Assembly: GCA_030562195.1 (NCBI GenBank)
Contig: CM060200.1
Location: 14,012,001-14,076,000, forward strand
Source of the DNA: Nipponacmea schrenckii
Taxonomy: Eukaryota; Mollusca; Gastropoda; Lottiidae
DNA: 64,000 bases
Direction of reading: 5' to 3'
A program made the translations under genes and the position numbers. Positions within the stretch are counted from its first letter, which is position 1; each line of letters begins with the position of its first letter. The notes under the pieces were generated by a model that was not told the DNA's origin, searched no databases, and saw only the letters and a program-made list of their open reading frames with translations. Positions 17,101 through 47,900 of this stretch are shown here, piece by piece.

Positions 17101-20100
17101 GGCATTAACTCATTTCTTTAGTTTTTAAAAAACTGATGACATCAAAATTCCCATCTGCAAGGATCGCAATCAGGGATTCTGTGGGATTTATTTTTCCCCA
17201 GCCGGTCATTTTTTTAACGATTTTTTTGTTGTTGAAGACAAGCTGGCCTATGCACACTAGTATTCAACTTGTATCCAACTGTACCGTTATACCATCCTTC
17301 AATGCCATGAACATGTGGTAATAATCATCATAATTCATAATTTGATCATTTTGCTATTTCTTCAGTACCATATGATCTCACATCGACAATTTTCAAGTCT
17401 GGTTAGTACAAATAAAATGAATGTTTACATAAAAACTAACCTCCTGTTAAAGTACCAGCTGGATCAAATGAATCACCATCAAATGTGACAGTCTTCTTTA
17501 ATACTCCATCATTATATGTGACTTTCTTAGCTGTATCCATATCAGGACAAATGAAACAACTACCAAAAACATACTGCATAGCTGTTTGTAAATCTTTGTC
17601 ATATCCAACTAAGCTTAATGCTGTACTCACATTTTCTTTACCGACCTTTTAATATAGATTTCATATAAATAAAATAAATCATAAGAATATCATCAATGAA
17701 AAATTCATTCAAAATAGATCTACATGTATATAAATAAATATAAAAAATCAAAATCCTAATTCATACTAATAGTCATATAATTAAGTTTCAAATTGAAATG
17801 TGGCAGGAGATGACCGAACAAGGATTTTTTAGTTAAGTTCAAATGGCCAACTAAAATGATTTTCAAATGTATTATACATTTTGATATGTCCATTAAATGT
17901 TCCTTATAAATATATCTTTAGTTTGAAAAAGCTAGATTTCAGTTTTCCAATTTAACACTTTTCAAACAATACTTAGCAAATTTTGAGTTTTCTGATTAAA
18001 CTTAGCAAATTATCATTTTTCTGATTAAACTTACATTTTCATTTTTCTGATTAAACTTAGCAAATTTTGAGTTTTCTGATTAAACTTAGCAAATTATCAT
18101 TTTTCTGATTAAACTTAGCAAATTTTCAGTTTTCTGATTATAACTTTAATTTTCCTGATTAAACTTAGCAAATTTTCAGCTTTCTTTACAATTTGAGGAT
18201 CAATTGATCTAGATGAAATCTTGTTTATAGGTATAAATGTGTAACGTTTCTTTAATTCTCCTTTCTGTAGTAATTTCTTTGCAGTGACCTCAGTATCAAC
18301 TACAACATTATACAGCTGAAACAATCAGTAAATAACTACATTATATACTTGAATATACCCAATCAACTATAGGGTAATAAATTAACAGCTGAAACACAAT
18401 AAATACTAAATGAACTAGTAAATTAACAGCCGAAACACAATAAACACTCAATAAACTAATAAACTAGAATTGCTTACAATTATGAACGTATTTCGAGAGC
18501 CTTAAAATATTTTGTAGGCTAAATTTGCAATGACCTACTTCTAGACAATATATTGAATATCATTTTACCTAGTTTTCAAAGTCATAAAATAATTAGGTCA
18601 CACCTTCCGTAACGGTTAATGATGGCGAAAATATGAAAATTATCAATTTTTGCTGTATTTAAGTACACTTATCTCTATGAATTTTTTAAGTAAGCCAAAT
18701 TAAAAAATATCTACTCGTAGACAATATATTGAATATTATTTGACCTAATTTTCAAGGTCATAAATTAAGTGGGTCACACCTTCCGTACCCATTAAAGTGA
18801 CCTAATTTTGAAAAAATCGAAATTTAAATAATTCGAAAGAAAATACGAAATTTGAAAATCGGTCTCCAAGAAAAGGTAGATAATGATCCATTGTATCTAT
18901 GTGCTAAATTTCATCAAAATCGGTCTATCAGTAGTGTCTGAATTTCGGATTTAAGAATTGTAACGAAAATTCAAAATGGCGGCCGATATGGCAGCTTGAC
19001 CTAATTATTTAGGTCAAATCAATTACTATTGACAAGTTATTTATAAAACAGTTTTCACTTTTCACCTAGCAGTTATAGACCGGAAGTTACGTAATTACGT
19101 CATTTGAGGCTAAACCGGAAGTGGAATTTTTTTTTCACATTTTTTTCAAAAATTTATAAACATATCGCCTATCAACTGGTAAAGTTTCAAAATTTTACCA
19201 TTTATATTAAAGGAGTAATCACGGTCTGAAATTTTTGCTGATGACCCTTGAATATTGAATTGCAAATCGTGGGTAAAATATTCAACCTAATTGCATAAAA
19301 CCTATAATTGTTAGTTGACAAATACATTGAAGTTTTCAAATCTGAAAATCCGGTCAAAATCGAACTGAAAATAAACTTGCTAAAGCAAAAAAACCTGAAC
19401 TTCCGGTTCTCACTTCCTGTCAGAGATAGAACTTCCGGTTTTGTTTTATTTGATAATTGAAATCATTCTAAGATCAACTGTAGATTTAGAATTTCTGCAC
19501 CTTTTACCAGTTTGTCTGCAAACTCATCCAAGAATTACAAAAAAAAAAAAATAAAATAATCCGAACGATTACAATACGTTTTCGCCAAAGTCGAAATACG
19601 TAATTAACAGCTGAAACACAATAAATACTCAATGAACTAATAAATTAACAACTGAAACACAATAAATACTCAATCAACTAGTAAATTAACAGCTGAAACA
19701 CAATAAACACTCAATAAACTAATAAATTAACAGCTGAAACACAATAAATACTCAATAAACTAATAAATTAACAGCTGAAACACAATAAACACTCAATAAA
19801 CTAATAAATTAACAGCTGAAACACAATAAACACTCAATAAACTAATAAATTAACAGCTGAAACACAATAAACACTCAATAAACTAATAAATTAACAGCTG
19901 AAACACAATAAATACTCAATGAACTAATAAATTAACAGCTGAAACACAATAAATACTTAATCAACTAGTAAATTTATAGCTTAAACATAGAAAATACTCT
20001 GTAAACTAGTACTAAATACTAATTATTAGTAAACGGTAAACAGTCAGTCTAGAACTAGTGCCACATTATACATACATGTACATGTAGTAAACAGACAATT

Positions 20101-22158
20101 ACTAGATAGGAGTAGACAGTGTTTGTCAACTAATATATTATACAACTGAATCAGATTGGAAAATAAATCTACCTTTCCACCAGCAGCTACTTCTAATGAT
20201 GTTGCTGTTCTTTCATTCTTGACTTGAATCAATTTACAAACTAAACCTTTAACTTTACTTCTATCAAAATTACTTTCAGGATTGCTGTATTCAAAGTTTA
20301 AATGTGGAAATCTAAAATAAAAAGGAATTTTATTAATTTGTTAAAAAATCATCCTATAGGCCAATGTAATCTTGTAATCTTGATTACATTATGAGTACAG
20401 ATGGTCTTGTATGTTTGCAAAAACCATTGTTTCGTGTTTCACAAAAAGCATTTTTAGATGAGTGAATTCTGAACAATTGTTTTGAGAATAGGTTTGCTTT
20501 GACTACTCTGTGCGTGTAACTTCCCATTTCTTTCCACTTATTTTTCTCACCCTACAATGATTGTCAAACTCGTTTGTTAGATAATCATTGAAAAATTTGT
20601 TGTCATAAACAGATGCTTCTACGGGGGCTGGCCTTGGCCACCAATTTCATTTCTTTTTTATATAGTGGTAAATAGACATATAAAAACAAATCTGTATTGT
20701 ATAGTAGAATATATTACCTAGATTGTAACATATGTAATTTTCCATTCAAACCCTCAACTTCCTTCATTAAATTTCTTCTTTCTGTTGCTAAATTTTCTTC
20801 TTGACCTTCTTCATATCCAGTTTTCTTAATCTCATTCTGTTAAAAAATACAGACAACAATTCAAGATAATATTTCAGTCATTTCTATTGCTTTGCCTCAA
20901 TTTCAGTCATTTCTACTGATTTACCTTTAATTTAGTCATTTCTACTGATTTACCTCTAATTTAGTCATTTCTAAAGCATTAACTCTAATAGAGTCATCTC
21001 TACTGATTTTCCTCTAAATAAGCCATTTTACTGATTTACCTCTAATTTAGACATTTCTGATTTTACTCTGATTCAGTCATTTCTTTGGATATACCTCTAA
21101 CATAATAATTACTACTATGTTACCTCTAATATAGTCATTTGTATTGATTTACCTCTAATTTAGTCATTTCTTTTGATTTACCTCTAAGTTAGTAATTTCT
21201 ACTGATTTACCTCTAATTTAGTTAAGTAATTTCTACTGATTTACCTCTAATTTAGTTTAGTAATTTCTACTGATTTACCTCTAATTTAGTTTAGTAATTT
21301 CTACTGATTTACCTCTAATTTAATTATTACTACCAATTTAGTAATTTCTACTGATTTACCTTTAATTTAGATTAGTAATTTCTACTGATTTACCTCTAAT
21401 TTAATTATTACTACTGATTTAGTCATTTCTACTAATTCATCTCTAATTTATTTCATTTCTACTGATTACCTCTAACATAGTAATTTCTACAGATAAATAT
21501 AAAAATTACTGATTTACCTCTAATTTAGTCATATGTTGTTTGATGTTTTCTAACAATGCCTGGTCTTTTTTATAATCATCTTTACCATGTTTTATACCGC
21601 TTTCTTGTTGTGTTAATTCTTTCTCAAAATGTTTCAATCTAAAAAAAATAATAATACAAATAATAGTGTTAAATGCAGGCAACTTCAACATCTTAGTTTT
21701 CAGCAATAATAAAATAATTGATTTTAGTTAATATTAAATGTAGTTAGTTAAAAAATAGGATAATACTTGATCAATAAAATGTAAATAGTAGTCACATAAT
21801 TAATGATTAGTGTTAGTTTGGCTACATGCTTTGAGCTTTAACCACAATCAAAGGAAAACAATGGTCAACTTTTCAAATGGGTTAAACAAGTGTCTAAAAT
21901 CATCACAACATTAGATATATTCCTGAGTTATTTTGGTTTGGTAGCTAAGGGCCTAAGTTCTAAATTTAATGTAATGAGTTCTGTATATGAACTTTTAAGT
22001 TCTGTCCCAATGTTATCAATAACTGTTTATAGCCCTGTAGCCAGATTTGTTATACATGAAATCTATCTATTTTACCATCTTAAAGAAGAATATGATGACT
22101 TACTTATTTTGAGCAGACAATATATCAGTATTAGCAGTACTTATCTCGTCTTCAGCAG
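8187..22158 (-). CDS. SMC2: SMC2, condensin core ATPase subunit: 12 internal exons (contig 2 version)
   Basis: SMC2 pairs with SMC4 in condensin, a nuclear ATP-driven motor that compacts mitotic chromosomes. Exons in transcription order: 22158-22104, 21638-21518, 20836-20718, 20311-20173, 18315-18169, 17645-17441, 15555-15419, 14334-14210, 12182-11989, 10742-10599, 10006-9812, 8387-8187. Phases join cleanly except at two places noted separately. They encode about 594 residues: coiled coil (AAEDEIS.., LKHFEKELT..), the hinge ([13 protein letters not shown] through [31 protein letters not shown] and [10 protein letters not shown]), then a Lys/Glu-rich return coil ending in [20 protein letters not shown]. 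This follows vertebrate SMC2 block by block. The N-terminal ~400 residues with the Walker A head are not found, and the C-terminal head lies only in the contig 3 version. A frameshift (15419-15555) and an altered donor (18169) make this version suspect. Confidence 0.93.
9418..9600. mobile_element. Partial foldback element (one arm)
   Basis: One arm of the same family as 57,100-57,518: GGTCTAATTAAAATAAAGAC through TAGGTCTAACACTGCCCTTC to CTTTGACTTAA. The second arm is absent in this SMC2 version. Confidence 0.65.
12615..14121 (+). mobile_element. Hairpin-ended element with ~161-bp internal tandem repeats
   Basis: It starts GATAGCTTGCCAGGCAAGG (palindrome CTTGCC-A-GGCAAG) and ends GACGGACGGACG..., CCACTTTTCCATGTGAGCG, TATAAA. 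The interior is about seven units of ~161 bp containing CCAAGTTTCATTAAGATCGG and GTCAAGGGCAATAACTCAAA; successive GTTTCATTAA positions are near 13200, 13361, 13522, 13682, 13843 and 14005. No coding capacity. It is in the SMC2 intron between exons 12182-11989 and 14334-14210. Confidence 0.8.
14920..15035. repeat. 20-bp tandem repeat, about 6 units
   Basis: A perfect 20-bp period of AATACATTAAACTAAGTAAT, in an SMC2 intron away from any exon. The matching place in the contig 3 version (near 62,090-62,110) has about one degenerate unit. Confidence 0.9.
15419..15555 (-). pseudogene. SMC2: SMC2 coiled-coil exon with a one-base frameshift
   Basis: The exon begins in frame ([16 protein letters not shown], right after the hinge GG) and ends in frame ([19 protein letters not shown]). 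The two halves are out of register: at 137 nt it is one base too long (or two short) for its 2-to-2 phases, and the first frame hits TGA. The slip lies in the A-rich stretch around 15,508-15,522. It could be a homopolymer consensus error, a null allele or a dying duplicate. Confidence 0.8.
15888..16472. mobile_element. Foldback MITE, 585 bp, long inverted repeats
   Basis: The ends are AACATTAACCCTGGTTACAT and its complement ATGTAACCAGGGTTAATGTT. The inverted match continues inward through GAGATATTGG, GGGCC and TTACATATGC, then through the CTAATTAAAATA...GACCTAAC block shared with the elements at 9.42 and 57.1 kb. No coding capacity, and no clear target duplication. Confidence 0.75.
17441..17645 (-). 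CDS. SMC2: SMC2 hinge exon
   Basis: A 205-nt exon encoding [20 protein letters not shown], continuing through [20 protein letters not shown] to [10 protein letters not shown], the C-terminal half of the SMC hinge. The GTL(T/S)GG motif is the conserved hinge glycine patch used for SMC2-SMC4 dimerisation. Acceptor TTAAAAG, donor GTTAGT. Confidence 0.92.
17960..18185 (-). repeat. Minisatellite made of SMC2 5' splice-site units (~28-29 bp)
   Basis: About eight units reading, on the coding strand, GAAAATTTGCTAAGTTTAAT followed by CAGAAAA and a variable triplet. The first nine bases are the last three codons (E-N-L) of the exon ending at 18169, and the rest is the start of its intron. One unit near 18,030 instead has a canonical GTAAGT. 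Confidence 0.85.
18169..18315 (-). CDS. SMC2: SMC2 hinge exon with altered 5' splice site
   Basis: A 49-codon exon from a GTTTCAG acceptor, [20 protein letters not shown] to VKKAENL. By homology the next exon starts VGKENV, so the exon must end at TTG (18169-18171). The following bases are CTAAGT, not GTAAGT, so the donor G is changed in this sequence. Minisatellites built from this junction flank the exon on both sides. Confidence 0.85.
18316..18463 (-). repeat. Minisatellite made of SMC2 3' splice-site units (41 bp), right part
   Basis: Two or three units of a ~41-bp repeat whose coding-strand reading contains TTTATTGTGTTTCAG then CTGTTAAT. This matches the acceptor of the exon starting at 18315 (GATTGTTTCAG then CTGTATAAT). 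The array is interrupted by a Helitron-like insertion at 18,464 and resumes at 19,604. Confidence 0.8.
18464..19603 (-). mobile_element. Helitron-like family A element with readable empty site
   Basis: A 1,140-bp non-coding element that starts on the plus strand with CTAGAATTGCTTACAATTAT (hairpin ATTG-CTTA-CAAT). It ends, after an A-tract, in an imperfect hairpin around TACGTTTTCG...CGAAATACGTAA. It sits inside the 41-bp minisatellite, so the uninterrupted unit (CTAATAAA then TTAACAGC) gives the empty site. The insertion is between A and T with no target duplication, the rule for Helitrons, whose 3' end on the minus strand would be CTAG before T. The 5' end is TTACG, not TC. No Rep-helicase is encoded, so it is non-autonomous. 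Confidence 0.75.
19604..19990 (-). repeat. 41-bp minisatellite of SMC2 3' splice-site units, left part
   Basis: About nine units of AACAGCTGAAACACAATAAA + CACTCAATAAACTAATAAATT on the plus strand, decaying near 19,990. On the coding strand each unit ends in TGTTTCAG followed by CTGTT, a copy of the acceptor of the exon at 18315 about 1.3 kb away. Confidence 0.88.
20860..21517 (-). repeat. ~29-bp minisatellite of SMC2 5' splice-site units (~22 copies)
   Basis: On the coding strand the unit reads ATGACTAAATTAGAG then GTAAATCAGTAGAA. The adjacent exon (21638-21518) ends ATGACTAAATTAGAG and its intron begins GTAAATCAGTA, so every unit is a copy of five codons (M-T-K-L-E) plus a working-looking donor. 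The array fills nearly the whole intron down to the next acceptor at 20,837. Confidence 0.92.
22104..22158 (-). CDS. SMC2: SMC2 exon, most upstream one visible
   Basis: A 55-nt exon (2 + 17 codons + 2) between a TTTTCAG acceptor and a GTAAGT donor. It encodes [17 protein letters not shown] and joins in frame to the next exon (AA|A, then LKHFEKELT). Coiled-coil composition. The contig ends ~500 bp further upstream, so earlier exons are missing. Confidence 0.8.
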
Positions 22159-22675
22159 CTGAAAATAACGAAACAATATCTAACAAACATGTCTATTTCA
22201 GAATATGATAAAATAATTTAATTCTTTTTGGCATTCATTACCAAAATTATGTCTTAATTAGTGTCGCAGCCAAAAAACACTATACCTTAAGAAAGTATTA
22301 AAAATAATAAGGTATTATTAGGTTTATATTGAGACATTATTTATATTGAAACGTTTCAGACATTCTATCGCAGCTTCAAACACCAAACAGAAGTAAATAG
22401 CTCCCACAATGGAGTATAACTTTAAATGATAAGTATGCGTATCTTTGCCAAAATTTAATTATCAACAGAGATCAAAACTTTAATTTACATTTTGAAAATA
22501 TCGGACATGAAAGCTATCTGTGTGTGAAAGTCTGATGACCTTGAATAAGTCATCTTCACTCACAATTCCAGTCTACCCAGCTGTAAATGGGCACGGATAA
22601 TCCAGGAAAGATCTATGCAAAGAGGATTGGCCAAGGACCAGCTGGTAGAAAGGATCCCTGTCACAACAGACTTGT

Positions 22676-23175
22676 NNNNNNNNNNNNNNNNNNNNNNNNN
22701 NNNNNNNNNNNNNNNNNNNNNNNNNNNNNNNNNNNNNNNNNNNNNNNNNNNNNNNNNNNNNNNNNNNNNNNNNNNNNNNNNNNNNNNNNNNNNNNNNNNN
22801 NNNNNNNNNNNNNNNNNNNNNNNNNNNNNNNNNNNNNNNNNNNNNNNNNNNNNNNNNNNNNNNNNNNNNNNNNNNNNNNNNNNNNNNNNNNNNNNNNNNN
22901 NNNNNNNNNNNNNNNNNNNNNNNNNNNNNNNNNNNNNNNNNNNNNNNNNNNNNNNNNNNNNNNNNNNNNNNNNNNNNNNNNNNNNNNNNNNNNNNNNNNN
23001 NNNNNNNNNNNNNNNNNNNNNNNNNNNNNNNNNNNNNNNNNNNNNNNNNNNNNNNNNNNNNNNNNNNNNNNNNNNNNNNNNNNNNNNNNNNNNNNNNNNN
23101 NNNNNNNNNNNNNNNNNNNNNNNNNNNNNNNNNNNNNNNNNNNNNNNNNNNNNNNNNNNNNNNNNNNNNNNNNNN
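22676..23175. other. Assembly gap, exactly 500 N
   Basis: Second scaffold-join placeholder. Nothing links the sequence on its two sides; SMC2 does not continue across it. Confidence 0.95.
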
Positions 23176-24163
23176 TCTTCCCTTTATATTTACACGATTT
23201 GAAAATCGCTTGATGGATGGCTCAAGCGTTTTATGATTAACTACTTTATTTTGGGGATTTATCGGATTTTAGAGGGATTTTGATGTATAGGTAAATCCAC
23301 TGGTGGATATATACTGTTATTGTCCAAATTTGAGTGGACTTGAAATTTTATGTTCGTTCAAACGCCTATTATCCCTTTAAGAACAAGGGCAGCAACTTAT
23401 AGGTGGAATAAAGATTTTCAAATATTTAGAGTATGACAAATAATTTATCCTGTTGAGAATTTGATAATCATTTTTAAATTTAACCATAAAGATACAAGCA
23501 TTATATTTCGACTTTTATTTCTTTGTACTTTTTCCTTTAAGAATATCTCTGTAATACACATATTTACCACTGTCAAATGAATATAATTGAAATGAAAATG
23601 GTTTTTTGGATCTTTCAGAGTTTTCTGCACCTCATGTGCTTATGAAGACAAGCAGTGTGCAATGAGAGAAATTTTTGCCATGACAGCAGCATTAGTCTAC
23701 TCTTTTGGGAAACCACATGTAGGCCTACAGCCTATAGCACACAGGGCCTTGTTTATTGTCCAATCTGAAGTATAAAGTTAACTGATATATGTGCAATCGA
23801 TAATGCTATATATTGTTTTGTGTGCTAAATCAAAACTTTTTATGCATTATTCAGGAATAAAGATTTTAATCAATAGTCATTATAAAGTGGATTATTTAGG
23901 TTTGTATATATTGTAAGCTTACATTACATGGATTATAAGAATTTTGTAAGCTAATATACAATAATGGTTATATCATTTATATCATGTATATCATTAAAAC
24001 TTTAAGATATATATAACTTATAGTGTATCAAAGGGGTATTCCCCCATTCTATAATGCCGGGTAAACCACACTACCCATACCCCCTTTCGAAACCTTATCC
24101 ATATAAACACTACATTGCTCAATGCAATCATCCAACACCTAAATAAACGTTATCAATTCTCTA
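23176..24163. other. AT-rich region without gene; contains an old SINE fragment
   Basis: There is no supported coding frame. The stretch 23,628-23,770 is a diverged reverse copy of the SINE at 40,433 (see that entry). The rest looks unique. Confidence 0.5.
23628..23770 (-). mobile_element. Diverged SINE fragment
   Basis: Its reverse complement aligns with the body of the intact SINE, including GACAATAAA..GGCC, TGTGCTA.AGGCTGT, GAGTAG.CTAATGC and CATTGCACACTGC. No tRNA head or tail is visible. Confidence 0.7.
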
Positions 24164-30975: not shown

Positions 30976-31102
30976 TACGGTGGCTGATTTAGGACACACA
31001 CGCAATTTTTTTTTAAGTCAGAATTCTGAGATAATATGTCGATCGCCCGAGATAATTAAGTCCGGATCCTGAGATAAATCTCGATCGACTGACTATGTCG
31101 GG
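30976..31102 (+). repeat. Left terminal inverted repeat, 127 bp
   Basis: Identical to the complement of 37,279-37,405. It contains GTC..(C)CTGAGATAA motifs spaced about 21-22 bp, which continue inside the element to ~31,190. It probably also holds the transposase promoter, since the ATG is 111 bp further in. Confidence 0.92.
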
Positions 31103-31213
31103 AACCTGAAATAAATTTAAACGCCTAATGTTGTCGGACGCCCGAGATAATTAAGTCGGGCGCCTGAGATATTAATGTCCAACACCTGTTTTTGTCTGAG
31201 TTAAATATCGAAC

Positions 31214-34200
31214 ATGGACGAAATAGTACGCTTATGTTTTGGACTTGGCTTTACACAAAGGGAAATGCTGCATGTAATACGAGAAAGTACTGGAATTATT
31301 TTATCTGACAGGCAACTAAGACGAGTTTTACGTCAAAACTACCTGTATCGTTCTAAGCACCAATCCGATATAGTTGATGTTGCGCAATTTATTAACGAAA
31401 ACATCAATGGCTCTGGATGTAATTTGGGATATCGATTGATGCATTTTAAATGTAAGCTTGCTGGTTATGTGATTAGCAGGAATAACGTCCGACTTATTCA
31501 AGGCATATTAGATCATGAAGGTGTGGAAAGACGCAGAAGAAGGCGGCTTGTACGTAGAAGGTATTTCTCTAGAGGACCTAATCACGTGTGGCATTTTGAT
31601 TCGTATGACAAGTTAACTCCATATGGTATTCCAATAAATGGCTGCATTGATGGATTTTCGAGATCGATTATCTGGTTAGAAGCTAATCATACTGCAAGTG
31701 ATCCTAAAGTAGTTGGGGGTTATTTTGTCCAATCTATTGAAAAGCATGGTGGCATTCCTATGTATATGAGAGCAGATAAAGGTACAGAAAATACAGTCGT
31801 TTGCGATATTTTTACAGTTGCACAGGAATTAATAACAGGCAGCAGAGACGAAGCTTCAAAAAGGTTCATTTATGGTAAATCCACAGGGAACCAGCGCATA
31901 GAAAGATGGTGGAGTTTCCTAAGAAGAAGCCACATGGACTTCTGGATACAGTTTTTTCACAATATAAAAGAAGATGGGAATTTCAGCGGAAGTAAAATTG
32001 ACAAGGACCTTATACGTTTTGTGTTTTTAGATATGATTCAGGTCAGTTTATAAGGCAGTAGATTTACAGGGATGACTAAACCTCAAAATCCCATCTGGTC
32101 CCGTTCTGTAGGTCCGTCGGTCTGTCCACAATTAGCTTGTTAACACTCTACATGGTGGAGTTCTTGTCGGATTTTAGCGAAACTTGGTATATTTTTTATT
32201 ACCACCGAAAGACGAACCCTATCGATATTGGTGCGATTCCGAAAATACATTCATGGAATTATGAATCTCTTAGACTTTGAATTGTTAAATTTTCAGCTTG
32301 TTAACACTGTCAAGGGTGGAGTTCTTAAAATATTTTAACGAAACTTGGGACACTTGTTTATCACAACCTGAAGAAGAACCCAATTGTTTTTGGTCCGATT
32401 CCGAAAACAATTCCTGGAGTTCTTGACGAATTTTAACAAAACTTTGTATATTTGTTCATCACCACCCACGGAAGAATCCTTTTGATTTCGGTCCGATTCC
32501 GAAAAATAATTCTTGGAAGTTTCGAGTTTGATTTCAAAACGCGTTAAATTTTCAACTCTCACATTAAACCTTATTATTCACAGCCTTCTGTGAAACAAAG
32601 CTAATTGTGGGCATATGTTACCTTGCCTAGCAAGCTATCTTTAATTTTCATACAGTTTTATTGATGGACTTCAAACATTAATTTATTAGTGACAGGGTCA
32701 TTCCAAGATTTGACACATGACCGATTTAGATTTTGATGAAACTCAAAACTATATTATATTTATAGGAAGAAATGTTAAATAATATTTGTTATATTTTTAG
32801 TTGTTTTTTTAATATTTACTTTTAAAAATTGAAGGGTCAACGAGGACAAATCCGAGAAATACTGAACCACCATGTTTGACTGTAAATATTGTGAAAACAG
32901 AATTAGATAAAAGTCTGAATTTTCAGGAATAAAGTGAATCCTATCAAATCCATTTATTGATGTTTTTATTGTGATATTTAAATGTTCTAAATATTTTCCT
33001 AAATTCAGATTTTTTATCTTATTAAGTTTTAAAAATATCTGATATCAAGCATGGTGTAACATCATATTTCAGACTTCTATTTGACCCTTCCATTTTTAAA
33101 AGTCTATATTTTATAAAATACGAAATTATACCAATTATTTTCTACACACCTTCCTCAGATACTCTAAATATAATATAGCTTAATGTCAAAATTAAAAATT
33201 TTAACAACATGTGGAATTCGTTATAGGCATTCCAGAACATTTTTCAAAATTTCTGCACATTAAACCGTGGGTTGTCTAATGCCCTTTTATTCCTTTTAAT
33301 TTATGACGTCTATTGTAAGTTTTACTCATAAAAATGCATAAAATTTACCATCGATGTCATAAATAAACATACATGTACTTACAGGACAAAACAGACCATA
33401 TGGCTTAGCCTACAGACGTTTTAAAAGTGTTCTGGAATGCTTGAAACGAGCTCTGTATAATGTGTAAAATTTTGATTTTTGCCTTTAAACTCCATTTAAG
33501 TTTCAGCATAATTTGAATATGTCAAGTGCCAGTTGTTAAAATATTTGATTTTCGTTGGAATGACCCGACAGTCTTCTGTGTAACAAAAATAAATGTGGAC
33601 GTATGTTCCCTTGCAAAGCAAGGCACCTTCTGTTTTGTGGCTGATCGCAACATATTAATACAAAATATTTTTCACGAACATGGCAAATTAATTCTTTAAT
33701 TGCAAAGTACATGTAGCCCCAGTTTACGGTACTCATTTCTAGCTGGAAGATGACTGTTTCCATGTATGAAGGCAGCCTTTCAAAGAAAAAAACGGTTACT
33801 CGTTTGACGCAAAATTGAAAGCTTTTTTACAATTTCAACGGTGACAACTTAAAATCATCCTTTTAAAATAAAAAAACAGCTCATTTATTAAGTTTCTTTT
33901 TAAATTTTTGCAGGAAGAATTAGATGACATTGTGTTAATCTGGAATCTTCATCGTATAAGGAGTAATAGATACTATCACCATGCTGTTGGAAAACCATCT
34001 TTAATGTATTCCTCTCCTGAAATCGCAGATGTTCATGATCACATTCAACCGTTATCAGAAGTATTCATGAGGTCATTCCGAGAAGAATGTATTTTCAAAA
34101 CACGAGAAACATATTGTGATGAAAATATATCTGAATTTTGTAACCAAACCATGAACAGGCATCGATTGGAGAAGGCTACGGATCCGGATTCAGGATTAAA

Positions 34201-34243
34201 CATGTACATGTTTCTTCGACAAGAAATAAATCAAATCTTGTAA
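31214..34243 (+). CDS. DDE integrase-type transposase of the IS3EU-like element (2 exons)
   Basis: It cuts and joins the transposon ends. Exon 1 is 31,214-32,041 (276 codons) and exon 2 is 33,914-34,243 (109 residues plus TAA). The intron runs from CAG|GTCAGT to TTTTTGCAG|GAA, phase 0, giving 385 residues. Residues 13-45 (FTQREM...SDRQLRRVLR) look like a helix-turn-helix. An Arg cluster (106-116) precedes the catalytic core: D129 in WHFDSYDKL, D188 in MRADKGTEN, E230 in STGNQRIERWWS. Spacing is D-58-D-41-E, close to the rve/IS3 fold. All three acidic residues are present and the frame is intact, so activity is plausible. No RT, gag or LTR is nearby, so this is not a retroelement integrase. 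Start chosen as the first ATG after the inverted repeat. Confidence 0.88.
32085..32640 (-). mobile_element. Hairpin-ended repeat element inside the transposase intron
   Basis: It has GTCCGTCGGTCTGTCC at one end and GGCATATGTTACCTTGCCTA with GCAAGCTATC at the other. This is the reverse orientation of the element class seen at 12.6, 46.8 and 53.8 kb, with diverged internal repeats around TTCTTG..GATTTTAACGAAACTTGG. Confidence 0.6.
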
Positions 34244-35054
34244 TTTGTATTATTTGTAGATTTCTGCATCAGCGACTCTCGACATCTTAAAGGGCCTTCG
34301 GAGTGACGGAATCTGATCGGCCACTTTCACAGAAGCACTGAAAGGCATTAGTATTTATTTTTTTGTGACACACACACACGGCACCATCGCCAGTCCAATT
34401 CGCTACCGATAGAGTTTTTTTTTCAAAGCCTTTAAAGGGAATGTGAAGCCAAAAATCAAAATGCAACACCGTCTCTGCTATTCCAGATAAAGCTAATGCG
34501 GATGAGCCATATCTCGCAAAAGGGGCCTTTGTTCAATCAAACTCATTTGGCGGGTCCAGGGGAAAACAAGAGTTGGGTTCTGCACATTTGGATTCGTAAG
34601 AGGCTTAAACTATAATTTTAAAGAGATTTTTCCCGTATAACAGTATCCTTTAGACATTATAGACAGATCCGTTAAAGGGGAAGCCTCGACTTATAACATC
34701 TTTCGTCAGTCAGGGCAATGTTTCCTCCCCGGAACATTTTTCAGATTGAAAATCGGACTATTTGCTTGCTTGATATGCGACGTTCAACGTTAGAAATTAT
34801 GACAAATCAACGTTATCAATGGTTATGTCACTTCCACAGTATATTCAAAAGCGCGTAGAAGGCGAGCAAATAGATCGATTTTGAATCGAAAAACTTTTCT
34901 GAACAGAAAATTGCTCTCATTAAACTGACAAAAGATGCTGATAGACAAGGCTTTCCCTTTTTCTGTACTTTCATTTAAATTCAAATGTTTGTCACTTCCG
35001 GCAAAACTTTGATAAGCACACGATCGTCGAAGGATGAATCTAAGCTTTCTTGAG

Positions 35055-35385
35055 TTTACGCGGGTGAGTGTAATCCGCACCGACTGTCGACTCCTTGTGG
35101 AGCTTGTCAAATGCAACTAAATTTTGAAATTTGTTGTCTATGTTTCCTTCTTTTTCTTTAAGAATTATCAGGAGAAATTTCATGAAACTAACATGAACGG
35201 TGGTATTTTATTTTTGTAATTAAATTTAGTTTCGTTGTTTTTGATTTATATTTCTGTTTCTGATTGTTAACTTATGCCTTCTAAATGAGAAAATGTGTTT
35301 GCATAGATTTTAATGTCTCTTTCGACAGCTGAGTGAGTCGACAGCTGAGTGGGAAGGTCGGTGGATTACACTCACCGAAATAACG
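35055..35385. repeat. Inverted repeat pair inside the transposon
   Basis: GGTGAGTGTAATCC with CACCGAC and TGTCGACTC near 35,063-35,094 is complementary, with small gaps, to GAGTCGACAGC..GGTCGGTGGATTACACTCACC near 35,335-35,380. It could be a small nested MITE or a regulatory stem. Confidence 0.5.
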
Positions 35386-35827
35386 ACTAGTATTTGAGAA
35401 AATTCCTTTAACTTTAGCTAAAATCATTCATTGAATACATGTATATCCAAAATATATAGAACAAGATTACAAAAACAATCAAACTGAGTTAAAAAAAAAC
35501 TAATAAATAATAATGATTTTAGACAAATCGAACAAACAAACAAAATCTGTTTACCGAACCTGACGGCATATCACATTAGAACTGTAACCTACAGAAATAA
35601 GGCTAAGACGCCTGAAAGCCTATTTAATAAACTGACAGCTTAAACATACCAAATATCAACATGCATAAACAAACAAAGACTAAAAAACAGCGAAAACTAT
35701 CAGAGATTAGGATAGGCAAAAGAATGCCCATTTCTTTAAATCTGAAAAAAATGTAGCCTGACAAAGAATGAATGGTATCAGACATCTAAGGGTAGACGGG
35801 GAAAGCATGTTGGCACAAAAGTATGAT

Positions 35828-37200
35828 TTACATGAAATCAAATTCTAGGTCCATTTCGTCGTCTAACACAATCACTTGGTCTGCTTCTATTGCAGGTTTA
35901 AATGAAACTTCACCATCATTGTAAACGGGTCTAAATGGGAAATCAACCAAAGGGTCTACCGAATCATTTGAAGAGTCGTCTTGTTTTACTTGTTTAATTT
36001 TTGTGAAAGCTTCTTTTTCACTTTGTTTTCTCTTTCTGGGAGTTTCTCTTTTTAGTTTAGTTTTCAAATAAAACCTTAAGGTTCTGCAGCCGCTTTCTTG
36101 ATAGAAATCCCCTACGGAGTAATCATCCATGATCTCCTGCAACTGGAAATCGCACAGTCCAGTATCCATTCGTTCTAAAGATCCCTTTGAAGATTTGCCT
36201 CCAGGGAAAAATTTTTGATAGCATTTCTGTAAAATGTCCGGTTTTTTTCCAGACTTGTCTATGGTTATGTTTCTAGTACCGCCACCAGTTTTGGTTCTGA
36301 CTTGTTTATAAGATTCAGTGACCTAATCGAAGTGCATCCACCCAATTTCGATGACTCTTGTTGCTTTGGTGGAATTGGTGGGCAAAATTGATTTGGATTT
36401 ACTACTAGGATTGTGATCAGATTCTTCTGGTGTTGGCTTATTTGCAAATTTTTCCCTTAAGCGTTCAATCAGACTAGGTTTTCTCTGACTTGCTGTGGGG
36501 CTTTGTTGATGAAGAGTGGGTAATGTAGGATGCTCCTTGTTTAACTTATGAAAATTAATGGCAGAAATTCTGTCCCCTCTTCGTGGAAGATAGGTAGAAA
36601 GTTCATCGTCTTGCATGTAGTGAACATTTGCCTCGTCAATCTGCAAAAGAATGAATGAAAAAAATGAAAAGAAATTGTTTGATTAGATAAATGCTACAGA
36701 ACAACATGTATTTCCGCTTACGGTTTAGTACAGCGGTTATGACTAACCATCAAATTCCGAATAAAGACTGAGTTGGCCAATTGGCGGTTGGTTCGCTTTG
36801 CCTTCTGATCTTTCCTGAACAATATCAATTTGAGGTACGGTTACAATCTCACTTTACAGAGTTATCTTCCCTTGTACCATAGTCCAGAATAATCTCTGAC
36901 CACGGCTCGTCGAACTGGGGGGATAACTCTGTGTTGGAGATTGGTACGGTAACTACAAACGTCTCAATTTCTCATTAATGGCAGTGGGCAAATTGAACCA
37001 ACCACATAAGATCTTCAGGACCTCGTTTTCATGGTTCAACGTAGCCGGGCGATTATTTAGGACCTATTTAACTCTGTAGCGCTAACATCAGACTCATAAT
37101 CCTTAAATCATTAAAAACTCACTCCGTCATCTTGAAGTCTTTTTATTTGGTCTTCTGTAACATTTCTGTTTTCTTTCAGGAATTTATAAAATGCCGCCAT
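35828..37200 (-). pseudogene. Accessory gene of the IS3EU-like element, one in-frame TAG
   Basis: Function unknown. Exon 1 is 37,200-37,123 (MAAFYKFLKENRNVTEDQIK.., 26 codons, donor GTGAGT). Exon 2 is 36,640-35,828 after a TTTTGCAG acceptor, joined in phase 0. The frame stays the same through to TGA at 35,828 except for one TAG at 36,323-36,325, about 296 codons in all. Recognisable blocks: DELSTYLPRRGDRISAINF (a small helical domain with the 'GDR' turn), a Lys/Ser linker, IEIGWMHF and YKQVRTKTGGGTR around the stop, then an acidic tail. I associate the GGGTR block with uncharacterised multi-copy animal proteins; that is recollection. The stop makes this copy broken unless read through. Its ATG lies 79 bp inside the right inverted repeat. 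Confidence 0.72.
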
Positions 37201-37278
37201 CTTCTTGGCCTTTCATCGGCCATGTGCGCAAAAAGGCTGATTATTTATCTCAGACTCCCGACTTAATTATCTCAGGAG

Positions 37279-37405
37279 CCCGACATAGTCAGTCGATCGA
37301 GATTTATCTCAGGATCCGGACTTAATTATCTCGGGCGATCGACATATTATCTCAGAATTCTGACTTAAAAAAAAATTGCGTGTGTGTCCTAAATCAGCCA
37401 CCGTA
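37279..37405 (-). repeat. Right terminal inverted repeat, 127 bp
   Basis: Exact complement of the left repeat. The CCTGAGATAATTAAGTCGGG-type motifs continue inward to ~37,235. Confidence 0.92.
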
Positions 37406-40432: not shown

Positions 40433-40764
40433 GGGAGCCGCAGTGGCTCAGTGGGTTCAAAAGGTCGAGATGAACTTTCGGATTTTACAGCCCGGTTTCC
40501 CCTTGTCAGTGATGCAGGTCGGAGGGACTGACATGGAAAAAGCGTCTAGTCGTTCGGATGGGACAATAAACTGAGGCCCCGTGTGCTACAGGCTGTGCAC
40601 GTAAAAGATCCCTCGACAGTTGGAAATCGCAAAAAGAGTAGGCTAATGCCGCTGTCCTGGCAAAATGTCCCTCATTGCACACTGCATGGCGTTGCCCGTC
40701 TTCATTAGCCCATAAGGTGCAGAAGAGTAGGACGTAAAATTCCATTCTTTTCATTTCATTTCCT
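40433..40764 (+). mobile_element. Intact tRNA-derived SINE, 332 bp
   Basis: The head is GGGAGCCGCAGTGGCTCAGT, with a tRNA-like A box TGGCTCAGTGG. A ~200-bp body follows, and the tail is TTTTCATTTCATTTCC. A 12-bp target duplication GTGGAATTCACT flanks it (40,421-40,432 and 40,765-40,776). The tail matches the 3' end of the LINE at 6,855-6,875 (CATTTCATTTCATTTCC), which suggests that LINE's enzyme mobilised it. Diverged reverse copies lie at 23,628-23,770 and 52,499-52,690. Confidence 0.85.
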
Positions 40765-40776
40765 GTGGAATTCACT
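40765..40776. repeat. SINE target-site duplication, right
   Basis: GTGGAATTCACT, the copy of 40,421-40,432. Confidence 0.9.
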
Positions 40777-41105
40777 AAAAATACAAAGATTTGAAATTTT
40801 GATCATCAAAAAGTTCCAACTTACTAAGATTGATTTACAGGTTAACTAAAGACTGGCACATAAGACATCCAATGAGAGTTAATGTGCAAAGACTACAAGT
40901 CAAAGTCGAAATTTTTAAGGGTTGAAGTTTTTCAAAACAAGGCCCCCGATCCCCTTCAAAATAGTTCAAGATATCTACAACTTGCCTATCAAATTTCTAA
41001 CAATTTCATAACGTCGATAGACGAACATGAGGGGTGGATTGAAAACGATAGGGAAATCTTGAACATATCTATACATGTTGAGTATTGTCGAGTATTGTTG
41101 AGGAA

Positions 41106-43171
41106 TGGAAAATGCCGGAATTTCCAAAAAGAAGAGGAAAATAGAGAGTGAAAAAAGGTGTTTTCAAGAACGATGGACTCAGGAATATTTTTTCATCGAA
41201 GGGCCGGATAAGCTTTCACAGCGAATCGCGAAACGATTGAAACCGTATTCAGATGGTGAATTTATAAAGGAGTGTTTACTGGATGTTGCAGAAGAAATAT
41301 GCCCAAAGATTGTGGTGGACATCGAGAAGATGAGTCTGTTGCAATGGACGGTTGTGCGGCGTATCGACGATCTCGCTCAGGACGTTTGTATAACTCTGAA
41401 AGACAAAATACAAAAATTTCACCAGTTGGAGCTTCGCAACCGATGAGAGTACTGATCGAAAGGATACGGCACAGTTGGCAATAGTCTTGAGAGGTGTCGA
41501 CGAGCATCTAAATGTGACAGAGGAGCTCTTATCTTTACAATCTATGGAATACACCACCACTGGACTTGATATCATTGCTGAAGTAGTAAAGGCGGCCGAA
41601 AAGTTCAATCTCGATTGGTCTACTTTGTGTGGAGTAGCCACAGATGGTGTACGAACTGTGTCAGGCTTAGGGGTTGGACTTATTGGTAGACTGAAAGCTA
41701 TGTTACGCGAATGATGACATCGTGGTATTCCACTATGTGATTCACCAGGAGAATCTTTGTGGTAAAAGTATAAAATTTAGGCATGTCGTGGGACCAGTAA
41801 CGCAAGCCATCAACTTCATTCGTGCACGAGGGTTAAAGCACAGACAGTTCCAAAAGTTTCTTGAAGATTTGAATTCGAATCATCAGGATCCGGTATGCTA
41901 CTATGAAGTGCGATGGCTGAGTCGAGGAAAAATGTTGAAAAGGTTATTTGAAGATGTCAGGGTATTCTTGGAAAGGGAGGAACACCGAATGCCGGAGTTA
42001 AAGGGGCACAGTCTTGATTTGTTTCGGACAATCATCCGACAGCCTCAAACACATGAAATCTTTTGTTTAGCTAATCAGAAATAGTCTACAGAGCTTACCT
42101 TTGAAATTTGAACCTTCAAATCCATATGTATCCATAATTATCCGTGTTTGAAAATCATAATGTCTTAAGATATTATGAACGTCCCCCCATATTGGAAAAT
42201 CAAAGAGTTATAAATAGACTACTGCGCAGGCCGACATTGATAAAACAAAAAGAAAGTACATGTAATAACAATTGAAGATTTTGTCAACAGGACACACAAT
42301 TTTCAGACTGACTGAAGACCAGCCGCGTACAGCACGGAAAAAAATAAAAAGTGAAATTTTTGAGGTATATTTCAAGGTATTTTGCGATTTTCTTAGAGCT
42401 TGAGTATTTCTGAGGACTGTTTAAATGTAACAAAGGCCCAAAACGACCCCTAAAAATCAAGATTGTGCCCCTTTAAGTGACGATGAATGGATATGCGACT
42501 TGCCTTTCTCGTGGATATCACAACTCATCTGAACGATCTCAACACCAAATTGCAGAAGAAAGGACAATATGTACACGAGTTGTATGCACACGTGAAAGCT
42601 TTTCAGAACAAATTGAGACTGTGGATTACTCAGATTCGCGGTGGAAATCTCACTCATTTCGAAACTCCCAATTCTTCAGGTATGATTCCAGACAAATTGG
42701 ATTTCTTTTGTGAGCAGTTACAAAGTTTGTCTGATGACTTTCACGCTCGATTTCAGGACTTCAAATCACATTAGAAATATTTCGCGATATTTGTAACGCC
42801 ATTCCACGCTGACGTTGACAGTGCGCCACCAAATATACAAATGGAGCTCATAGAACTTCAGGAAAGAGTGGATCTAAAAGCTAAGTTCAATGATGAGACA
42901 GATATTGGACTTTTTTTATCATGAAAATCTTTACGGTTTGCCCAATCTCAAGAGATTTGTTGCGTCAAAAATGGCATTATTCGGCTCAACATATCTGTGC
43001 GAACAATTTTTCGGCAAAATGGGATACATGAAGAGTCCTCATCGAACCTCATTGACAGACGAGTATTTGGAAAATGGACTGAGAGTAGCTGGTTCATCCA
43101 TTCATGGGAAGGGTTATTCAAAATATCCAATTGCAAACCTCTCATTGTATAATTGCGATATGAAACAGTGA
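41106..43171 (+). pseudogene. hAT transposase pseudogene (GTF2IRD2/Charlie8-like)
   Basis: Blocks in order match the GTF2IRD2-like group of hAT transposases: KKRKIESEKRCFQERWTQEYFF (the N-terminus; the BED zinc finger that should follow is deleted), FIKECLLDVAEEICP, TVVRRIDDLAQD, ATDESTDRKDTAQLA with the first catalytic Asp, WSTLCGVATDGVRTVSG, HYVIHQENLCGK, VRWLSRGKMLKRLFE, WICDLAFLVDITTHLNDLN, and the C-terminal dimerisation block FVASKMALFGSTYLCEQFFG. Frameshifts lie near 41,425 and 41,712 and further breaks near 42,775 and 42,918. A 471-bp MITE is inserted at 41,998. The VATDGVRTVSG block has Arg-Thr where the family has Ala-Pro. Clearly dead. Confidence 0.87.
42002..42472. mobile_element. 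TTAA-flanked MITE, 471 bp
   Basis: It begins AGGGGCACAGTCTTGATTT and ends AAATCAAGATTGTGCCCCT, flanked by TTAA on both sides (41,998-42,001 and 42,473-42,476). A TTAA target and AGGGG ends suggest Kolobok or piggyBac mobilisation. It splits the hAT pseudogene; removing it with one TTAA restores the hAT frame across the site. Confidence 0.85.
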
Positions 43172-43647
43172 TATTTCGTTGATTTTAAATTATTATGTCT
43201 GTTATTATTTGCAATACACATTGAAATACGTGATTGAATGAATCACTTGTTTCTCATTGTTAATTCCATGATTCATTAATGGTTGGTTACGTGGCTTACT
43301 CGCATCCCAAATGTGGCCCACCCTTGCGGAAAGGTTGCACAGGCCTGCTTTCAGGTGTTCAAATGCTGATGAATTTTTCTCATGTGAGATTCTACTAGGA
43401 TCGACAGTAATGCCGAACAAGCCATCCGTCGTTTCCTGGCCGCCATAACACGAGAGATAAGGCATAAAAAATGGGTTGGGAAAAAGGAACCATTTTAAAA
43501 ATGGTGGCAATGTTTCCCGCCAAGATCGCTAAAACAATAAAACGACTGTATGAAATGGGTATTTTTATTTTCTTGCCGAAGCCGCGCTAAAGTCGTGCTA
43601 TTTGAATTAAGTTCGACACGACTGGGGCGCGACGTTTAAATTAGGCC
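43172..43647. other. Spacer, no gene recognised
   Basis: Between the hAT pseudogene and the orphan receptor exon. The open frames are short and without recognisable motifs. Confidence 0.4.
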
Positions 43648-43909
43648 TAATATAGGTGTGGTAGAGCTAATGTTGGTAGATACAATCCTAATATTGATGG
43701 TGGTAGAAACAATCCTAATATAGATGTTGGTAGAAACAATCCTAATATAGATGATGGTAGATCTAATGTTGATAGAAACAATTCTAATATAGATGGTGGT
43801 AGAGCTAATGTTGGTAGAAACAATTCTAATATAGGTGGTGGTAGAGCTAATGTTGGTAGAAACAATCCTAATGCAGATGATGGTAGACCATGTGCTAATC
43901 TTAAATGAA
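43648..43909 (+). pseudogene. Orphan last exon of an Ig-receptor paralogue (repeat tail)
   Basis: It reads as NPNIDGGR-type 14-residue repeats (NPNIDVGRN, NSNIDGGRANVGRN and similar) ending in DDGRPCANLK and TGA. This is the same as the end of the receptor tail at 49,164-49,717 (DDGRPYANLK), with the terminal Tyr codon TAT changed to TGT. No Ig, membrane or signal exons are seen upstream. It is probably a relic of a tandem receptor duplication. Confidence 0.75.
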
Positions 43910-44956
43910 TCAACAAAGTTAACAAATGCCAGGTTTTCCAAATTGATGTTTGTTGAAATGCTAATAAAGAAAATACAATACATTGCCATTATAACGCTCT
44001 ATTATCTTTACTACTAAACATCGTGTACATCAGCAATTGTAAAGTGGGGCGCGGTAGAATGTTGAAAAGAAAATTATCCCACAGATCATTGGAAATGAAA
44101 CTGGACATCACAGAGTAAAATAATAAAAAAATTGTAAGATATAGTATTGTCTGACTAAATAAACAAGAAAAGAACTTTTCAAATTCAACATCCCAGAAAT
44201 ATTAAAAAGGAGAAAAAATATTTAAAATTTTTTGAATCCCTTCCCCGTTACTCTTTATGTGTTGGGGAAAGACTCTTTCGAAAAATAAAGATAGACCTGT
44301 AAACAGCACCGAGCTAAAATTTTTGATCCAAATCAGCATATTTGTAAATAGCATAGGTCAAGGTTATTATACACAGAAAATTTCAATGCCATTAAAGGTC
44401 AAGATCACGAGATAGAGAATTTTGAATTTTAGAGGAAATCTTTGTTCACATTTTTTTGGAAAAGAAATATCAATTTTTAAATTTTCCGAATGCATCAAAT
44501 ACATCTTATTACAATTAAAATATTAAAGAAAATTTGAAACAAGAACTAAGCGTTACATATCGATCTGATAATTAGCAACATTGCTGTAAATTTAAAAAAT
44601 ATTTTTCCCAAAAGGTTTGATATCAAAATATTTTATCTAAAACATTCCAAAACCTTTTATTTATCAATTTCATAAAATTAATCTTAAAATCTTATTACAA
44701 AAAAATAAATCAATAAATCAAGGAAATTCGAAATGATGGATTATATTATTTTAGTCAGAGTGCTATGGGTGATTGACTTGTTTCAATACCAGTGGTTTTT
44801 CATTCACTTTACAACTGCATGATTCATATTAGACAAGTCGTTTCCTCAATAGAAAATTGGTTTTTCTTTTTTTATAAATCACGACCCATATAGAAATAAG
44901 GAAGTATTACAGATTTTTTTTACCTTATGTTAAATATTTGAAAATTTTAAAACAAC
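43910..44956. other. Upstream region of the Ig receptor
   Basis: AT-rich with no gene. The stretch 44,296-44,420 resembles a Helitron-like family B fragment (AGACCTGTAAACAGCACCGAGC). I cannot point to a convincing promoter element. Confidence 0.4.
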
Positions 44957-47900
44957 ATGGCGAATTGTGTATTACTATTAGGAATATTAACCCAAGCTAT
45001 ATTAGGTACAGTTTAAATATCTTCATTCTTTTGTCGTAAATTATGATTTATTCTCCTGTGTCAACTATCTATTGTTTGGTGGACCCTTTCTATTCTATGC
45101 CAAGTTATTATAAATACTGAGCCTTATGAACTAGTTGATGGGGAATCTGGTAGTATTACCAGTTTTTATAACAATGTAATTTACAGCAACTGTATAATAT
45201 CTCTATTCTAGGTCAAGTTATTATAAATACTGAACCTAATAAACTGGTTGATGGGGAATCTGGTAATATTACCTGTTCATATACCAAAGCTTATTTAATA
45301 TCTATAAATCGTATATCTGGTAATATAGTTAACTGTCCTGTTTCTAAACAAACGTACGCCTGTAGTGTTAGTCAACCTGGACCTAAAAACAACTATACTG
45401 ACTATAGAAAGTTCTATACATTTTCTAAAACAGGTACTAGTGTAACTATACATATTGAAACAGTATCTAAACAAAGAGATGATGGTTACTGGGGATGTAA
45501 AAAGACATTTATTCTATCTTCACTTAAAGTCAATATAACTATTGATGTAAAAGGTAATTATTATGTTTATCATCAACTTCATCATCTTACTTATATATAC
45601 TCCACATTGAAAATATAAAATTATTAATATTATGTATTGATGTTAATCGAACATATATGACGAACAGTTGAAAAATATAGGATATATTTACTCTACTTCT
45701 TTTACTTTTTGATACTAAACTAAATACAGCTCATGGTAAATATGTTTCTTAACATTTCTATTTTATATCGTCTATAGATGAATCTATTTTATTCCAGTAC
45801 CTGTTAAAGGTGTAGAAATAGAAAATAAAAACAGTCTACAACTATTAAATGGATTGTCTACCACAATGAAATGTAGAGTCACCAATAATCCTGATCCAGT
45901 AATAAATTATAGGTGGTTTATAGTAGAAACAAACCAAACATTATCAACAACATCACCTTTCCAGTTGATACCAAATAAAAATCAAAATGGTCTTAATCTA
46001 TCATGTTCAGCAAACAATGGATATGGTAGGAGTAAATCTGATACTGTTATTCTTGATGTTAAGTGTAAGTAGATTAAACTTAGAAACTATTTCATATTTC
46101 TGTTGTTAGATAAACCAAGTATATTTGAGATTTCTATTATAGATAAACCAAGTATATATATATTATTTCTGTTATAGATAAACCAAGTATATTATGTTAT
46201 ATTTCTGTTGTTAGATAAACAAGTATATATATATTATTTTTCTGTTGTTAGAATATTTTAGATTTCTGTTATAGATAAATATCTTTTGTTAGACAAACCA
46301 AGTATATTTTACATTTCTCTTGTGAGTTAAACCATGTATAAGTTGTATTACTGTTGTGAGATAAACCAAGTATATTTTGATATAAATTTTCTCGTAGATA
46401 AACCAAGTATATTTAATATTACTGTTGTGAGATAAACCAAGAATATTTTGATATATTTGTCTCGTAGATAAACCAAGTATATATTTAATATTTCTGTTAT
46501 AGATAAACCAAGTATATTATGTTATATTTCTGTTGTTAGATAAACAAGTATATTATTTTTCTTTTGTTAGAAAAACCAAGTATATTTTATATTTCTGTTA
46601 TAGATAAACCAAGTTTATGTTAAATTTCTATTGTAAGACAAACAAAGTATATTCAATATTTCTATTGTGAGATAAACCAAGTATATTTGGATATATTTGT
46701 CTCATAGATAAACCAAGTATATTTTGTATTTCTGTTGTTAGATAAACCAAGTTTATTTTTATAAGCCCAAATGAATATGTGGACGTATATTGTCGCCCCC
46801 CCTGTCCGTTGGTTCGTCGGCCAACATTTATTGTGGGTACAATAGAAGCTATAATTTTCAATAGATTAGATGAAACTTTGTGTGAGCATTGGAGTTGAAT
46901 ATACGGCAGAAAAGTTTGAATTTTTTTTTAAATGAACAGCTTTTGAGTTATTCTCCTTTTACTTCGTAAGACCATGTCAAAATTCTATTGTGGTTGCAAT
47001 AAAAAGATACAATTTTTAATAGATTTTGATGAAACTTTGTATGAGTATTGGCACTGTATTTGTTGTGGGTGCTATAGAAGCTACAATTTTCAATGGATTT
47101 AAATGGAACTTGGTGTGAGCATTGGACTTGATAAGAGTTTGAATTCGACAAATTTTCGGTTTTCGAGTTTTTGCTCTTGAATTAGTAAAACCAGGTCAAA
47201 ATTTTATTACGGGTGTAATAAAAGATACAGTTTTCAATGGAATTGACAAGACAGCGGTCGTCAAGTTCAAATTTGACGACCTAGATGAAGGGTTTGTTGT
47301 ATTTATACATTCTATGAATCAAAGGAAAAATTATTTAACAATGCTTATGTAGGGGCGTATGTTACCTCGCCTGGCAAGCTATCTTATATTTCTGTTGTGA
47401 GATAAACCAAGTATATTTCATATCTGGTTTTTTAAAAAAAAAATAAACCAAGTATATTTTATATTTCTGTTGTCAGATAAACCAAGTATTTATTTATTTT
47501 TTTTTTTTTTGGTTGTCAGATAAACCAAGTGTAAAGATAGAACCCGAAGTGTCTGGAAACTACAGACTAATAGAAGGTCATACAGTAGAATTAAAATGTG
47601 TTATAACTGATGCGAATCCTCGCGATGCTGGTAGTTTGATGTATACATGGTATAAAGATACAACTACACCTACAGGGCATTTTAGTTCCACAGTTCGAAT
47701 ATCACAGAAAGGAATATATAGATGTTCTGTTTCTAATGGAATTGGTACGGGGATATCAGATTATATTACTATAGATGTTTTATTTCCACCACGAGTCAAC
47801 GTAACACCACAATATAGTATTATAGAATTTAATACTCTCACTATACCCTGTATAGCTACATCTAACCCTGTACCTAATAATTATACTTGGTCTGGACCTA

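What the first reader, a model, noticed from the sequence alone, without database searches (positions are those of the whole stretch)
17960..47519. Intronic minisatellites built from splice junctions, in two unrelated genes
Four separate arrays each repeat the exon/intron boundary beside them: two 5' splice sites and one 3' site in SMC2 (minus strand) and one 3' site in the Ig receptor (plus strand). The units hold exonic codons plus the intron start, or the tract-AG plus the first exon codons. Arrays away from exons (the 20-bp repeat at 14.9 kb) do not do this. A common process may seed tandem duplication at splice junctions in this genome, lengthening introns with decoy splice sites. I know of no named class for it.
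Basis: partly seen in the sequence, partly recalled or inferred. Interest (0 to 1): 0.85.

Follow-up and report, generated by a model that had tools for sequence, protein, structure and literature searches.

The report
Splice-junction minisatellites (mirages) in a limpet
In a limpet genome, short stretches that straddle the border between coding and non-coding gene parts have been copied repeatedly into the neighbouring introns; this kind of repeat was already described in amphioxus as a mirage, and here it appears in a mollusc at five gene borders.

Summary
All four arrays exist, and each repeats the exon/intron junction beside it: 5' sites of SMC2 exons E2 and E5, the 3' site of E5, and a 3' site of an Ig receptor. 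The window is inferred to come from a limpet close to Lottia gigantea (SMC2 95% identical). Three L. gigantea Ig gene models hold the same exon-2 start 4, 5 and 9 times, so this is not one assembly's artefact. 'No named class' is wrong: these are 'mirages', known from amphioxus. Junction targeting is suggestive, not shown: random placement over all introns gives P of about 6e-5, conditioning on the introns involved gives 0.009, and junctions lie in duplications less often (5 of 38) than intron interiors do (22%). Best reading: independent mirage minisatellites, the exon-side copy functional, inner copies decoys. Caveats: no RNA data; this SMC2 copy is one of two, has a frameshift, and its E5 donor reads CT.

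The parts
21518..21638 (-). SMC2 copy 1, exon E2; its last 15 nt (ATGACTAAATTAGAG) are the exonic part of the array unit
   Evidence: L. gigantea SMC2 P0021 aligns through it
20871..21541 (-). Array A3, about 29-34 bp unit, 23 units recognised including the exon-side copy; 5' junction of E2
   Evidence: junction score 52
18169..18315 (-). SMC2 copy 1, exon E5 (147 nt), with a junction array on each side
17959..18190 (-). Array A1, about 29 bp unit, 7 units recognised including the exon-side copy; 5' junction of E5; junction position reads CT in 6 of 7
   Evidence: junction score 64
18372..18466 (-). Array A2, exon-side part (41 bp unit); 3' junction of E5 (TGTTTCAG|CTGT)
   Evidence: junction score 36, the weakest of the five
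19592..20008 (-). Array A2, distal part, beyond a transposon insertion of about 1.1 kb
18464..19601 (.). Transposon inserted into array A2; boundaries by reading; similar sequence from 24160 on
   Evidence: reading; internal repeat 18529-18795
47520..48056 (+). Ig receptor exon X4; its first 11 nt are repeated in the units
46094..46757 (+). Array A4, about 34 bp unit (TTTCTGTTGTTAG|ATAAACCAAGTATATT); 3' junction of X4
   Evidence: AG kept in 22 of 22 units that reach the site
47385..47533 (+). Array A4, exon-side part, running into X4
   Evidence: junction score 42
45089..45174 (+). Upstream copy of a two-copy duplication (113 bp apart) of the X2 3' junction; its AG reads AT
   Evidence: 86 nt, 87% identical to 45202-45287; junction score 50
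45212..45553 (+). Ig receptor exon X2; its start occurs 4, 5 and 9 times in three L. gigantea gene models
14917..15032 (.). 20-bp array, the one non-transposon intronic array that touches no junction; about one unit remains in SMC2 copy 2

Best explanation
These are mirage minisatellites. Short segments (29-113 bp) that straddle an exon-intron border were duplicated in tandem by ordinary slippage or unequal exchange, independently at five borders, and four of them grew and turned over inside the intron. The copy touching the exon keeps the coding and splicing role; inner copies are intronic decoys that drift. Shown: junction-spanning units, unrelated unit sequences in different arrays, different copy numbers at the X2 border in related genes, and premature stops if the tested inner sites were used by simple exon extension. 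Inferred: slippage or unequal exchange as the mutation, and that splicing normally ignores inner copies. No special targeting of junctions is required, though it is not excluded.
For: Five of 45 distinct junctions stand clear of the rest. Units contain real exon codons, and the SMC2 exon side is conserved in L. gigantea, so the exon is the source of the unit. Unit sequences and lengths differ between arrays. Three L. gigantea Ig models hold 4, 5 and 9 copies of the X2 start, and P0004 and P0002 align with the window through the upstream copy into the intronic stretch behind it. The 20-bp array of SMC2 copy 1 is about one unit in copy 2, so arrays here come or go quickly. All 44 inner sites that my patterns picked out (20 in A4, 14 in A3, 10 in A2; A1 not tested) give a stop if the exon is extended to them. 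Amphioxus mirages have the same anatomy at 5' and 3' borders.
Against: No RNA evidence. The A1 donor is CT in the exon-side copy, so 'the exon-side copy keeps function' is not shown there. AG is kept in 22 of 22 A4 units, though many other unit positions are equally conserved. Five of six non-coding duplications at junctions is more than random placement predicts.
Confidence: 0.78

Rival explanations
1. A junction-targeted mutational process (for example breaks or template switching tied to co-transcriptional splicing) seeds tandem duplications at exon-intron borders in limpet genes.
For: 5 of 6 non-transposon, non-coding tandem duplications in the two genes span a junction; random placement over all introns gives P = 5.8e-5, or 4e-6 with introns at full present length; further repeats in L. 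gigantea Ig models.
Against: Conditional on the introns involved P is 0.0086, and 0.04 for at least 3 of 4 without X2 and A2; no positional excess (5 of 38 junctions against 560 of 2,500 interior positions); the window was picked after the fact; two genes only.
Confidence: 0.18
2. Introns gained by tandem duplication (Rogers model): the arrays made the introns.
For: Junction repeats are the starting material of that model, and the amphioxus globin paper proposes it (passages).
Against: One end of intron E2/E3 (3') and of intron X3/X4 (5') lies outside the array, and those two junctions score at background (23 and 22). The receptor introns after X1, X2, X3 and X4 are all phase 1 (exon lengths), the usual state of old introns beside Ig domains (recalled).
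Confidence: 0.04
3. Assembly artefact: the repeats are false.
For: The window has two 500-N gaps, a one-base frameshift in SMC2 E7 and a second SMC2 copy that may be an uncollapsed haplotype.
Against: Units differ from one another; two arrays are interrupted by transposons; the X2 repeat recurs in L. gigantea gene models. Exact copy numbers remain uncertain.
Confidence: 0.05
4. The match between array and junction is chance plus splice-site consensus.
For: A2 matches only about 28 nt of its junction, with gaps, and one of 2,280 shuffles reached its score.
Against: The other four exceed every shuffle and include at least 11 exonic bases that are not splice consensus.
Confidence: 0.03

Closest known systems
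Mirage minisatellites of amphioxus (Adh3, globins BflGb6 and BflGb9, troponin C; PGBD5 compared with them)
   Different: Here in a mollusc, in SMC2 and an Ig receptor; splicing and length variation were examined in amphioxus and not here
Variable internal tandem repeats at exon-intron boundaries of human segmentally duplicated genes
   Same: Minisatellite units of about 30 bp at exon-intron boundaries (passages of PMC2812944)
   Different: There repeats at boundaries can create new introns and often have transcripts that keep the repeat in the exon; here they lie in introns beside existing exons
Rogers tandem-duplication model of intron gain (as cited in PMC3087553)
   Same: Tandem duplication of a segment holding splice signals
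   Different: Here an existing intron is lengthened; one intron end lies outside the array

Membership tests
Mirage minisatellites | Tandem repeat units span an exon-intron boundary | tested here: met
   5 of 45 distinct junctions
Mirage minisatellites | Both 5' and 3' boundaries can be affected | tested here: met
   5' at E2 and E5; 3' at E5, X2 and X4
Mirage minisatellites | Many but not all units keep AG or GT | tested here: met
   A2 12 of 13, A3 15 of 20, A4 22 of 22, A1 0 of 7 (units with letters at the site, exon-side copies included)
Mirage minisatellites | Copy number is unstable | tested here: inconclusive
   X2 start: 2 copies in the window, 4, 5 and 9 in L. gigantea gene models; orthology not settled, no individuals compared
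Mirage minisatellites | Regular splicing is not disturbed | not testable with these tools
   No RNA data; 44 of 44 inner sites tested would give a stop if the exon were simply extended
Rogers-type intron gain | Both splice sites of the intron derive from the duplicated unit | tested here: not met
   3' end of intron E2/E3 and 5' end of intron X3/X4 lie outside the arrays and score at background; not examined for the other introns

The most novel reading that the evidence does not exclude
Limpets of the Lottia lineage have a mutational process that preferentially duplicates exon-intron borders throughout the genome, so that mirages are a major source of intron growth and of new exon-like units of 51 nt, as the tandem exon-2 starts in L. 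gigantea Ig gene models suggest.
Probability: 0.15. Interest if true: 0.75.

Novelty: new member of a known kind. Interest (0 to 1): 0.45.

Why it matters
In what I could read, mirages are reported from amphioxus. Several in two adjacent mollusc genes, with related repeats in L. gigantea gene models, suggest that the phenomenon is broader. They are natural experiments on how the spliceosome picks one of up to about 20 near-identical sites, and a visible route by which introns grow and new exons could arise.

Tried and rejected
Considered and rejected: splice-consensus coincidence (shuffles); intron gain (one intron end outside the array in two introns); decoys as in-frame exon ends (44 of 44 tested give stops). 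A GC-AG reading of the E5 donor (TTT|GCTAAG) puts the next exon out of frame (reading sequence), so the donor stays unexplained. The one inner A1 unit with GTAAGT (about 18034) lies behind an in-frame stop (reading).

Paper searches: searches returned nothing; one search returned one paper, not opened; one search returned nine, of which I saw passages of four (PMC6905558, PMC2812944, PMC3087553, PMC3902484) and only titles and abstract starts of five. No other molluscan case was seen, but the library is open-licence PubMed Central only. Of the listing on intron gain I opened only PMC3087553. The founding amphioxus Adh paper is not held and is known to me from another paper's passages and reference list. 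The abalone TSSK1-like paper reports a 27-bp intron minisatellite; the passages seen do not place it at a border. The C. elegans minisatellite paper concerns splicing motifs, not border repeats (passages).

Full report
What the window is. The minus-strand gene at 8.2-22.2 kb is SMC2: a 279-aa piece of its translation matches a solved SMC2 chain (E = 9e-85), and the product is 95% identical to Lottia gigantea SMC2, against 59% for the next hit, Haliotis asinina. The plus-strand gene at 44,957-49,718 is a receptor with Ig domains (Pfam Ig_2, Ig_3) whose four best hits are L. gigantea proteins. I infer a limpet close to L. gigantea; the species was not identified. Exon models were built by hand from sequence and reading frames: 12 SMC2 exons (E1-E12) and 8 receptor exons (X1-X8), 18 complete introns, 38 junctions. 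The receptor frame is clean; SMC2 has a one-base frameshift in E7.

Checking the observation. Tandem Repeats Finder reports all four arrays, except the exon-side part of A4, which searches show. To avoid picking only striking cases I scored every junction: the 40 bases centred on it against 2.5 kb on each side. Five of 38 score 64, 52, 50, 42 and 36; the other 33 score 25 or less. Seventeen junctions of a second SMC2 copy, 7 of them new, score 26 or less, so 5 of 45 distinct junctions. Of 2,280 shuffled junction 40-mers one reached 36, none more. Four of the five are far beyond chance; the E5 3' array is the weakest.

Anatomy. Exon E5 has an array on each side. A1 (5' side, about 29 bp) repeats the last bases of E5 and the intron start. 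A2 (3' side, 41 bp) repeats the tract-AG and a few exon bases and is split by a transposon of about 1.1 kb. A3 (5' side of E2; 23 recognisable units) carries the last 15 exonic bases and the intron start and makes up about 95% of its intron. A4 (3' side of X4; 23 recognisable units of about 34 bp) holds tract-AG and 11 exonic bases, is split by another transposon, and makes up about 57% of its intron. Counting units with letters at the site, exon-side copies included, the splice dinucleotide is kept in 12 of 13 (A2), 15 of 20 (A3; three more do not reach it) and 22 of 22 (A4; one more does not). In A1 the position reads CT in 6 of 7 units, the exon-side copy included; the seventh is shifted and has GTAAGT. 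L. gigantea SMC2 shows the E5/E6 junction at exactly that place, so the lost donor is a real puzzle or a sequence error. All 44 inner sites that my patterns picked out (20 in A4, 14 in A3, 10 in A2; A1 not tested) lead to a stop if the exon is extended to them. Most intron sequence would do the same, so this shows only that inner use would be harmful.

Cross-species evidence. P0004 (70%, E = 4e-18) and P0002 (74%, E = 1e-11) align with the window through the upstream copy and into the intronic stretch behind it. Model P0143 has an 18-residue unit three times just before SPRLDTRE. A stretch of P0001 before KPSVKIEPE resembles translated A4 units at the same border, with weak E-values of 0.06 to 0.7. 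These are gene predictions, not proof that the copies are spliced into mRNA, and orthology is not settled; they do show the same border repeated elsewhere with other copy numbers.

Is there junction targeting? A scan of 8,100-22,600 and 44,900-49,800 (lags 12-600, at least 25 of 30 matches) gives 7 non-transposon tandem duplications: 5 at junctions, 1 intron-internal (14908-15041) and 1 coding (49234-49708), besides 4 clusters that I assign to transposons by reading. Placing units of the observed lengths at random over all introns, transposons removed and arrays collapsed, at least 5 of 6 non-coding ones at junctions has P = 5.8e-5 (4e-6 with introns at full present length). Without the two-copy X2 case, at least 4 of 5 has P = 1.6e-4; without X2 and A2, at least 3 of 4 has P = 0.0012. 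Conditional on the introns in which they lie, these become 0.0086, 0.0086 and 0.04, because introns E2/E3 and X3/X4 would have been only about 62 and 39 bases long before the arrays grew. By position there is no excess: 560 of 2,500 sampled non-transposon interior positions (22%) against 5 of 38 junctions (1,075 masked transposon positions, 419 above threshold, left out). The window was chosen because it looked striking, so I treat targeting as suggestive only.

Second SMC2 copy. Residues 711-1197 are encoded again at 50,647-61,656, same strand. Exons E8-E12 are 97.6 to 99.5% identical, with 7 synonymous and 3 amino-acid-changing codon differences in 286 codons and no stops. The two longest collinear blocks, exons included, are 91.8 and 92.8% identical; shorter ones are 80 to 93%. 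Copy 1 shows only residues 404-997 in this window, which has a gap of 500 N just upstream of it and ends before its 3' part could appear. The copies may be a recent duplication or uncollapsed haplotypes. The 20-bp array of copy 1 is about one unit in copy 2. The three SMC2 junction arrays cannot be compared because that part of copy 2 lies beyond the window.

What is known. [quoted passage not shown] it says they do not seem to disturb splicing, vary in length, and may explain intron gain (abstract and passages of PMC3087553). The PGBD5 paper adds troponin C and compares its own repeats with them (passage of PMC3902484). Human segmentally duplicated genes have comparable repeats at exon-intron boundaries (passages of PMC2812944). 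The finding is thus a new member of a known kind, in a phylum for which my searches showed no report.

Noticed in passing
50647-61656 (-): A second SMC2 copy (residues 711-1197), exons E8-E12 97.6-99.5% identical to copy 1: recent duplication or uncollapsed haplotype
   Followed up: partly
18167-18168 (-): SMC2 E5 donor reads TTTG|CTAAGT instead of GT, and the same CT stands in 6 of 7 array units; homogenisation may have spread a donor-killing change, or it is a sequence error
   Followed up: partly
15419-15555 (-): One-base frameshift in an A-rich stretch of SMC2 E7 relative to L. gigantea SMC2
   Followed up: partly
49234-49708 (+) and 43651-43905 (+): Coding minisatellite of about 42 bp in the last exon of the Ig receptor, and a separate copy of such a repeat with a similar C-terminal end, probably the remnant of a receptor paralogue
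   Followed up: no
about 31000-37400: Likely DNA transposon: integrase core domain (Pfam PF24764) at 31205-32053, and 22-bp repeats at 31133-31175 and 37241-37284 that look alike in opposite orientation by eye
   Followed up: no
1287-5588: Two LINE-like elements in opposite orientation (endonuclease domain tested in one)
   Followed up: no
12708-14059, 53910-55297, 61070-61458: 161-bp-period repeats inside a dispersed element, in introns of both SMC2 copies
   Followed up: no
L. gigantea gene model P0141: A stretch like the receptor's last exon start (DDTQTYQELDT...) appears twice in tandem in the protein model
   Followed up: no
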